DNA of 37,198 nucleotides from Candidatus Poribacteria bacterium (GTDB lineage: Bacteria > Poribacteria > WGA-4E > WGA-3G), in the NCBI GenBank assembly GCA_022825665.1, contig JAJDWI010000169.1, positions 1-37,198 on the forward strand. Direction: 5' to 3'. Position 1 is the stretch's first letter. Each line of letters starts with the position of its first letter. Below the pieces are notes generated by a model. That model made no database searches. It saw only the letters and a list, made by a program, of their open reading frames with translations, and was not told where the DNA came from. Below are positions 1-37,198 of the stretch, piece by piece. Made by a program: the position numbers and the translations under genes.

Positions 1-108
1 ATAGTGAAGCCATCAGAAGTCTATATAGAGAGATTGCCACAGATTTCAGCAAAAGTCAAGGACTTTTTCAACAATGGAGACGTTAGCCGTTGGACATCCC
101 AAAGCTAA
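1..108 (+). CDS. C-terminal tail of an unidentified protein (partial)
   Basis: The reading frame is open from base 1 to a TAA at 106-108 and encodes 35 residues ending NNGDVSRWTSQS. The start lies outside the window. I do not recognise the family. The tail is charged, with no membrane segment or known motif. It overlaps the left half of a hairpin region that resembles the right edge of the window, so it may be the end of a mobile-element protein or an accidental open frame. Confidence 0.25.
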   Translation: MVKPSEVYIERLPQISAKVKDFFNNGDVSRWTSQS

Positions 109-150
109 AGCATTGGGTTTTGAACAGAACGTTTGATAAGAAAGACTAAT
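46..150 (+). repeat. Transposon-end-like hairpin, relative of the right-edge hairpin
   Basis: CCCAA at 98-102 can pair with TTGGG at 113-117, and an outer CGTT (88-91) can pair with AACG (128-131). The loop contains TAAAGCA. The sequence aligns with the reverse complement of 37000-37080: both share AAAAGTCAAGGA, then CATCCCAAA and TAAAGCATTGGG, then AACGTTTG. In the other copy the outer stem is a different perfect pair (GCGGTGT/ACACCGC), so the fold is kept while sequence changes. A hairpin with a CTTTA-type loop is typical of IS200/IS605-family ends. No transposase is adjacent, so this would be a solitary or decayed end. Confidence 0.45.
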
Positions 151-36952: not shown

Positions 36953-37014
36953 ACCCACCAAATCCAAGGTTACTTATGTTTGAGGTTTTTCTGATGTATT
37001 TTTTACCAAACGTT

Positions 37015-37058
37015 GCGGTGTGAAAGCCCAATGCTTTAATTTTGGGATGAAACACCGC
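37015..37058 (+). repeat. Transposon-end-like hairpin at right edge
   Basis: GCGGTGT at 37015-37021 pairs with ACACCGC at 37052-37058, and inside it CCCAA (37027-37031) pairs with TTGGG (37042-37046). The reverse complement matches the hairpin at 46-150 closely, but with a different outer stem. It precedes a strong promoter. Hairpins of this form are typical of IS200/IS605-family ends. Confidence 0.6.
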
Positions 37059-37067
37059 CAAAAATCC

Positions 37068-37096
37068 TTGACTTTTTCTATAAAATGCGGTATCAT
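37068..37096 (+). promoter_or_regulatory. Near-consensus sigma-70 promoter before a structured RNA
   Basis: TTGACT (37068-37073) and TATCAT (37091-37096) are separated by exactly 17 bp. Transcription should start near 37103, at the base of the structured RNA. No gene begins before the window ends, so the first ~95 bases of the transcript are non-coding. Confidence 0.75.
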
Positions 37097-37098
37097 GT

Positions 37099-37191
37099 AT
37101 TTAGTCCGTTGGATAGGAAAGCAATCGCCTACTCTCTGTAGGTGTCCTATCCAAATCAAATTGCTTTGATTGGAACGGATTGGGACTAAAT
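37099..37191 (+). ncRNA. Structured RNA with three-way junction and possible pseudoknot (partial)
   Basis: Outer stem: ATTTAGTCC (37099-37107) with GGACTAAAT (37183-37191). First arm: GGATAGGA (37111-37118) with TCCTATCC (37145-37152), topped by CCTAC/GTAGG. Second arm: AATCAAA (37154-37160) with TTTGATT (37165-37171). AAAGCAAT in the first arm's internal loop (37118-37125) is complementary to ATTGCTTT (37160-37167) in the second arm, which could form a pseudoknot or alternative fold. A GGGA/TCCC hairpin (37182-37194) competes with the outer stem. It may be an omega-RNA (HEARO-like) of an IscB-type element whose protein lies beyond the edge, or an mRNA leader. No known family is identified with certainty. 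Confidence 0.6.
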
Positions 37192-37198
37192 CCCTTAG

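What the first reader, a model, noticed from the sequence alone, without database searches (positions are those of the whole stretch)
37015..37198. Promoter-driven, folded RNA behind a transposon-end-like hairpin, running off the right edge
A perfect 7-bp outer hairpin, a 17-bp-spaced promoter and a three-way-junction RNA with two well-formed arms and an 8-base complementarity between their loop regions lie in order within 184 bp. IS200/IS605-group IscB elements have this layout: left-end hairpin, promoter, omega-RNA (HEARO), then the nuclease ORF. The family assignment is inference; hairpin pairing and promoter are seen directly. If right, an RNA-guided nuclease gene begins just past 37198.
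Basis: partly seen in the sequence, partly recalled or inferred. Interest (0 to 1): 0.72.

Follow-up and report, generated by a model that had tools for sequence, protein, structure and literature searches.

The report
Protein-less transposon with switch-like guide RNA
The window ends inside the left end of a small bacterial jumping element that encodes no protein but a large folded RNA, whose front half is a switch-like leader also found ahead of tnpB nuclease genes and whose back half is related to the guide RNA of those nucleases.

Summary
In detail: hairpin, promoter, three-way-junction RNA and the 8-base loop complementarity are all present. They form the left 196 bp of an IS200/IS605-type element in a Candidatus Poribacteria genome; the contig stops inside it. 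The IscB/HEARO reading fails: no Rfam HEARO hit, and a 99%-identical sister copy reads on 289 nt without a nuclease gene. Complete copies (545-556 bp, ten measured in one closed same-genus genome) encode no protein. Each is a left-end hairpin, a promoter, a pseudoknotted leader RNA, a structured middle, and a 3' domain homologous to the 3' end of tnpB, which in TnpB elements makes the guide (omega/re)RNA. The leader is absent from Rfam 15 and covaries strongly: 34 of 37 pairs, including all 6 pseudoknot pairs. It recurs about 125 times in 41 of 85 Poribacteria genomes: in protein-less elements, directly ahead of several kinds of tnpB, and ahead of some chromosomal genes. In tnpB leaders the 5' strand of the closing stem can pair with either of two tandem partners, one covering the start codon, and both pairings covary. 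Likely a two-state translation switch on tnpB, kept on orphan guide-RNA transposons that use TnpB in trans. Anatomy is shown; guide and switch functions are inferred.

The parts
37003..37006 (+). TTAC, target tetranucleotide at the left boundary of the element
   Evidence: TTAC or TTAT at this position in nearly all copies, unrelated sequence to its left
37015..37058 (+). Left-end subterminal hairpin (outer 7 bp GCGGTGT/ACACCGC, inner CCCAA/TTGGG)
   Evidence: same type of hairpin in other copies and in tnpB-bearing elements
37068..37096 (+). Sigma-70-type promoter TTGACT-17-TATCAT
   Evidence: the -35/-10 region is conserved among copies; a promoter pattern precedes 45 of 65 motif copies
37097..37198 (+). 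Leader RNA: pseudoknotted three-way junction, cut at its 3' side by the contig end
   Evidence: Fold z = -5.14; covariance-model match 81 bits, 3' truncated; covariation
37103..37110 (+). Closing stem P1, 5' strand AGTCCGTT; pairs with AACGGATT 37174-37181
37111..37152 (+). Arm 1: GGATAGGA 37111-37118 / TCCTATCC 37145-37152, inner stem CGCCTAC 37126-37132 / GTAGGTG 37138-37144
37118..37125 (+). Bulge strand of the pseudoknot, AAAGCAAT (first base shared with arm 1)
   Evidence: 6 of 6 pseudoknot pairs covary, 99.5% paired in 36 sequences; the pseudoknot was not part of the model used to align
37154..37171 (+). Arm 2 hairpin AATCAAATTGCTTTGATT; carries the other pseudoknot strand ATTGCTTT 37160-37167
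37182..37190 (+). Possible second P1 3' strand GGGACTAAA (tandem alternative partner of the P1 5' side)
   Evidence: Sequence complementarity; tandem second partner in about half of 65 copies and covarying in tnpB leaders
95..139 (-). Left end of a related IS200/IS605-type element, cut by the other contig end (separate insertion)

Best explanation
The feature is the left 196 bp of a non-autonomous, protein-less IS200/IS605 (TnpB-group) element of about 550 bp in a Candidatus Poribacteria; the rest was lost because the assembly breaks in repeats. Its left-end promoter should transcribe one structured RNA running to the right end. The 5' module is a pseudoknotted three-way-junction leader of the kind that also precedes tnpB, where the P1 5' strand can pair with a first 3' strand (start codon free) or a second 3' strand that covers the start codon, so it probably switches tnpB translation. 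The 3' module descends from the tnpB 3' end / right end and probably acts as a TnpB guide RNA whose guide comes from the flanking host DNA, used in trans by TnpB of autonomous relatives so that the element is retained at its site. Shown: anatomy, copies, homology, covariation. Inferred: transcription, the continuation of the window's own copy, guide activity in trans, the switch and whatever drives it.
For: Copies and breaks at contig ends. Complete protein-less copies: C81, ten in closed genome G009 (OY282386.1, Candidatus Poribacteria), 545-556 bp with unrelated flanks; sister copy C79, 2 mismatches in 196 nt, continues 289 nt. Left end and -35 box identical over 87 nt between a tnpB-bearing and a protein-less element of one genome. 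A profile made only from six tnpB 3' ends finds the 3' domain of protein-less elements, E 1e-10 to 1e-6, including C79 at 4.3e-7; that domain has 56 consensus pairs, 19 with compensatory changes. Leader: 96.5% of cells paired, 34 of 37 pairs change on both sides, 0/500 shuffles; pseudoknot 99.5%, 6/6; G-U 49 against A-C 8. tnpB leaders: pseudoknot 95.6%, P1 94%, alternative start-codon pairing 98.1% with 8 double changes, 0/500. Leader directly ahead of four Pfam-confirmed TnpB proteins. reRNA origin, boundary and TTAC target of IS608 from PMC8612924 and PMC10711439.
Against: The window's own continuation is not in the assembly and is inferred from the sister copy. No expression or TnpB-binding data. 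The protein-less 3' domain has an extra stem not present in the tnpB 3' ends, so TnpB may not accept it. The leader also occurs without transposon ends ahead of unrelated genes, which a purely TnpB-related role does not explain. Alignment A2 was fitted to a model of the stems, the A4 alternative pairing was noticed by eye before it was counted, and related copies are not independent.
Confidence: 0.66

Rival explanations
1. Plain MITE: a dead deletion derivative moved by TnpA in trans, whose RNA is a by-product without guide function.
For: Protein-less, multi-copy, shares ends with a tnpB-bearing element; Y1 transposase genes are elsewhere in the genome.
Against: Both halves show compensatory changes across genomes, which a passive remnant would not keep.
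Confidence: 0.2
2. The leader is primarily a host cis-regulatory RNA (riboswitch-like) that transposons have captured.
For: Single or few copies per genome ahead of ParB-like, TPR, DUF805 and GmrSD-type genes without a recognisable left-end hairpin.
Against: At least half of the 65 inspected copies (34) have a left-end hairpin and most strong hits are in elements; downstream genes differ and share no pathway; some loci keep the leader while the gene changes, as old insertions would.
Confidence: 0.2
3. IscB/IsrB element with a HEARO omega-RNA at the left end.
For: General layout: left end, promoter, structured RNA.
Against: No HEARO hit in window, genome or related loci; no nuclease ORF after the RNA in the sister copy or in complete copies; 3' domain matches tnpB ends. 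Caveat: the search rang in no control genome.
Confidence: 0.02
4. The conserved pairing acts as DNA (single-strand hairpins for the Y1 transposase), not RNA.
For: IS200/IS605 ends are recognised as single-strand hairpins (established for the family).
Against: The structure lies inside, downstream of the promoter; G-U outnumber A-C pairs 49 to 8, pointing to RNA of the + strand; it occurs ahead of genes without transposon ends.
Confidence: 0.05

Closest known systems
TnpB omegaRNA/reRNA of IS200/IS605 elements (e.g. ISDra2; PMC8612924)
   Same: 3' domain homologous to the tnpB 3' end plus right end, ending at the transposon boundary; TTAC/TTAT at the left end (IS608 uses TTAC)
   Different: No tnpB in the element; own promoter at the left end; an added 5' leader domain and an extra stem before the terminal hairpin; longer RNA by inference
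[quoted passage not shown]
   Same: Left end, promoter, then a structured leader that limits translation of the transposon gene
   Different: Here a pseudoknotted three-way junction with two alternative 3' strands, ahead of tnpB rather than tnpA, and also on protein-less elements; no sequence relation was tested
MITEs / palindrome-associated elements derived from IS200/IS605
   Same: Short, protein-less, share ends with autonomous copies, many copies
   Different: The interior is a conserved, covarying RNA rather than an unconstrained remnant
HEARO / IscB omega-RNA (RF02033; PMC9755519)
   Same: Structured RNA in an IS200/IS605-group element, linked to an RNA-guided nuclease family
   Different: No Rfam match, no HNH/RuvC ORF; the guide end is expected at the right end, not in the 5' UTR of a nuclease gene

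Membership tests
HEARO / IscB omega-RNA | Match to Rfam RF02033 | tested here: not met
   and on nine related loci. The search rang in no control genome
HEARO / IscB omega-RNA | IscB/IsrB ORF downstream | tested here: not met
   Sister copy C79 and complete copies show no ORF. The window's own copy is cut off and cannot be tested
IS200/IS605 transposon | Subterminal hairpins at both ends and a fixed short target at the left end | tested here: met
   TTAC/TTAT at the left, hairpin then GTCA at the right, unrelated flanks in other copies; the right end of the window's own copy is not in the assembly
IS200/IS605 transposon | Encodes Y1 TnpA and/or TnpB | tested here: not met
   Element is protein-less, hence filed only as a non-autonomous derivative. 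TnpA and TnpB genes are elsewhere in the genome
Non-autonomous IS200/IS605 derivative (MITE-like) | Shares ends with a protein-coding element of the same genome | tested here: met
   87 nt identical left end plus -35 box, L156 against L117; L016/L019 share the left-end hairpin in the own genome
TnpB omegaRNA/reRNA | Derived from the tnpB 3' end and right end, scaffold ending at the boundary | tested here: met
   (homology only; on sister and complete copies)
TnpB omegaRNA/reRNA | Binds TnpB and guides cleavage next to a TAM | not testable with these tools
   Needs expression and interference assays
Translational leader switch | Mutually exclusive pairings, one hiding the start codon or ribosome-binding site | tested here: met
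   In tnpB leaders only; protein-less elements have no start codon to hide
Riboswitch | Specific small-molecule ligand | not testable with these tools
   No ligand evidence; downstream genes share no pathway
Any Rfam 15 family | Score above the gathering threshold | tested here: not met
   no match above gathering

The most novel reading that the evidence does not exclude
A new class of pseudoknotted RNA switch, spread through Poribacteria, controls tnpB translation through two mutually exclusive pairings, and the same module heads orphan guide-RNA transposons: mobile elements that carry no protein but make switch-controlled guide RNAs for TnpB nucleases in trans.
Probability: 0.4. Interest if true: 0.82.

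Novelty: new variant of a known kind. Interest (0 to 1): 0.62.

Why it matters
It would show how expression of an RNA-guided transposon nuclease may be controlled by an RNA switch at its start codon, and that guide RNAs can spread as protein-less transposons that exploit TnpB in trans. It adds a strongly covarying leader RNA that Rfam 15 lacks, with about 125 examples, so both ideas are directly testable by standard reporter and interference assays.

Tried and rejected
HEARO/IscB: no Rfam match. Group I IStron for this element: suspected from a GACTATA stretch, no Rfam support in the related loci. A DUF805b hit in the window (E 0.66, other strand, below gathering) was taken as chance. Copies in plasmids, phages and IMG/VR: none (the last two are exact-pattern scans only). 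R1 had too little diversity for distant leaders; R2 replaced it. An inverted match between the -10 region (AATGTGGTATT) and a downstream AATACCACATT in many copies was noticed but is absent in the window's subfamily and stays unexplained. Literature searches found no description of protein-less elements carrying TnpB guide RNA or of a tnpB leader switch, but the library is partial.

Full report
Observation. The hairpin, promoter, three-way junction and 8-base loop complementarity are present as described. The RNA is far more stable than shuffles (z = -5.14); the promoter pattern and the DNA hairpin are unremarkable alone. Window = the whole contig C153 of a 170-contig genome; both of its ends are IS200/IS605-type left ends, and most copies sit at contig ends, so the right edge is an assembly break in a repeat.

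What the element is. The search of the own genome with the last 299 bases gives 36 matches, two of them nearly identical over the 196 nt from 37003. One of these, C79, has 2 mismatches and continues for 289 nt into right-end-type sequence without an ORF. A complete copy lies inside contig C81, and ten copies measured in the closed genome G009 are 545-556 bp. Flanks are unrelated; the left boundary is TTAC or TTAT, the right boundary GTCA after a hairpin. G009 is recorded as Candidatus Poribacteria, OY282386.1. In the complete copy C81 no stop-free frame exceeds 72 codons.

Relation to TnpB. Same-genus elements with the same left-end type carry tnpB. In G009 a tnpB-bearing element (L156) and a protein-less one (L117) share 87 identical nt including the -35 box. 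A DNA profile built only from six tnpB 3' ends finds the 3' domain of the protein-less elements over about 125-150 of 158 positions: E 1.2e-10 for L116, 4.3e-7 for C79. In TnpB elements this region is the reRNA: about 150 nt from the tnpB 3' end and right end plus some 16 nt of flanking DNA as guide (PMC8612924); in IS200/605 TnpBs the scaffold ends at the transposon boundary (PMC10711439). The protein-less 3' domain keeps 56 consensus pairs with compensatory changes in 19, and has an extra stem before the terminal hairpin. That it guides TnpB is inference.

The leader RNA. A model of the 5' domain found copies in 22 of 73 genomes of the order; a second model built from 36 of them found about 125 in 41 of 85 genomes of the phylum and none in the 12 genomes outside the order. 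On 36 sequences 34 of 37 pairs change on both sides, and the bulge-loop pseudoknot, which was not in the model used for alignment, is 99.5% paired with all 6 pairs covarying. G-U pairs exceed A-C 49 to 8, pointing to RNA of this strand. Rfam 15 gives no match above gathering. Of 65 copies inspected, 34 have a recognisable left-end hairpin. Four different TnpB proteins, confirmed by Pfam, start directly behind it; other copies precede ParB-like, TPR, DUF805 and GmrSD-type genes.

The switch. In nine same-genus tnpB leaders the same fold holds (95.6% of cells paired; pseudoknot 14 double changes). The P1 5' strand can also pair with a second strand that ends in the tnpB start codon: 98.1% paired, 8 double changes, 0 of 500 shuffles. 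The two pairings exclude each other, so tnpB translation is probably switched. In L242 the second strand instead contains the ribosome-binding-site-like AAAGGA (sequence). In protein-less elements a tandem second strand is also frequent: over 65 copies the mean longest second complementarity is 5.3, control 4.5 with sd 0.12. IS200 tnpA has a simpler ribosome-site-sequestering leader (PMC12594629). What turns the switch is unknown.

Limits. The window's own continuation is inferred from C79. Covariation counts use related sequences and partly structure-fitted alignments; the alternative pairing was seen by eye before it was counted. No expression, binding or cleavage data. The leader's presence ahead of unrelated host genes is not explained.

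Noticed in passing
window 95-139 (-): The left edge of the contig is also a left end of a related IS200/IS605 subfamily, so both contig ends are transposon ends.
   Followed up: partly
L242:2262-2508 (-): Partial group I intron (RF00028, E 0.14, below gathering, but typical GAAGAUAUAGUCC core) just upstream of a left end, leader and tnpB: IStron-like arrangement in a Poribacteria genome.
   Followed up: no
L197, L199, L201, L205, L210, L211, L250; L203: The leader RNA sits ahead of a ParB-like gene at what looks like a syntenic place in several genomes, but ahead of a PD-(D/E)XK-like gene in G020: the leader stays while the gene changes.
   Followed up: partly
L255: A leader copy lies 18 nt ahead of a DUF805 gene; L267 carries a related leader ahead of a different gene.
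   Followed up: no
L013:2427-2535 and similar copies: In many protein-less elements a stretch AATACCACATT in the RNA is complementary to the -10 region AATGTGGTATT; purpose unknown, absent in the window's subfamily.
   Followed up: no
L022 (C124): One left end inserted into or duplicated within another left end (nested hairpins).
   Followed up: no
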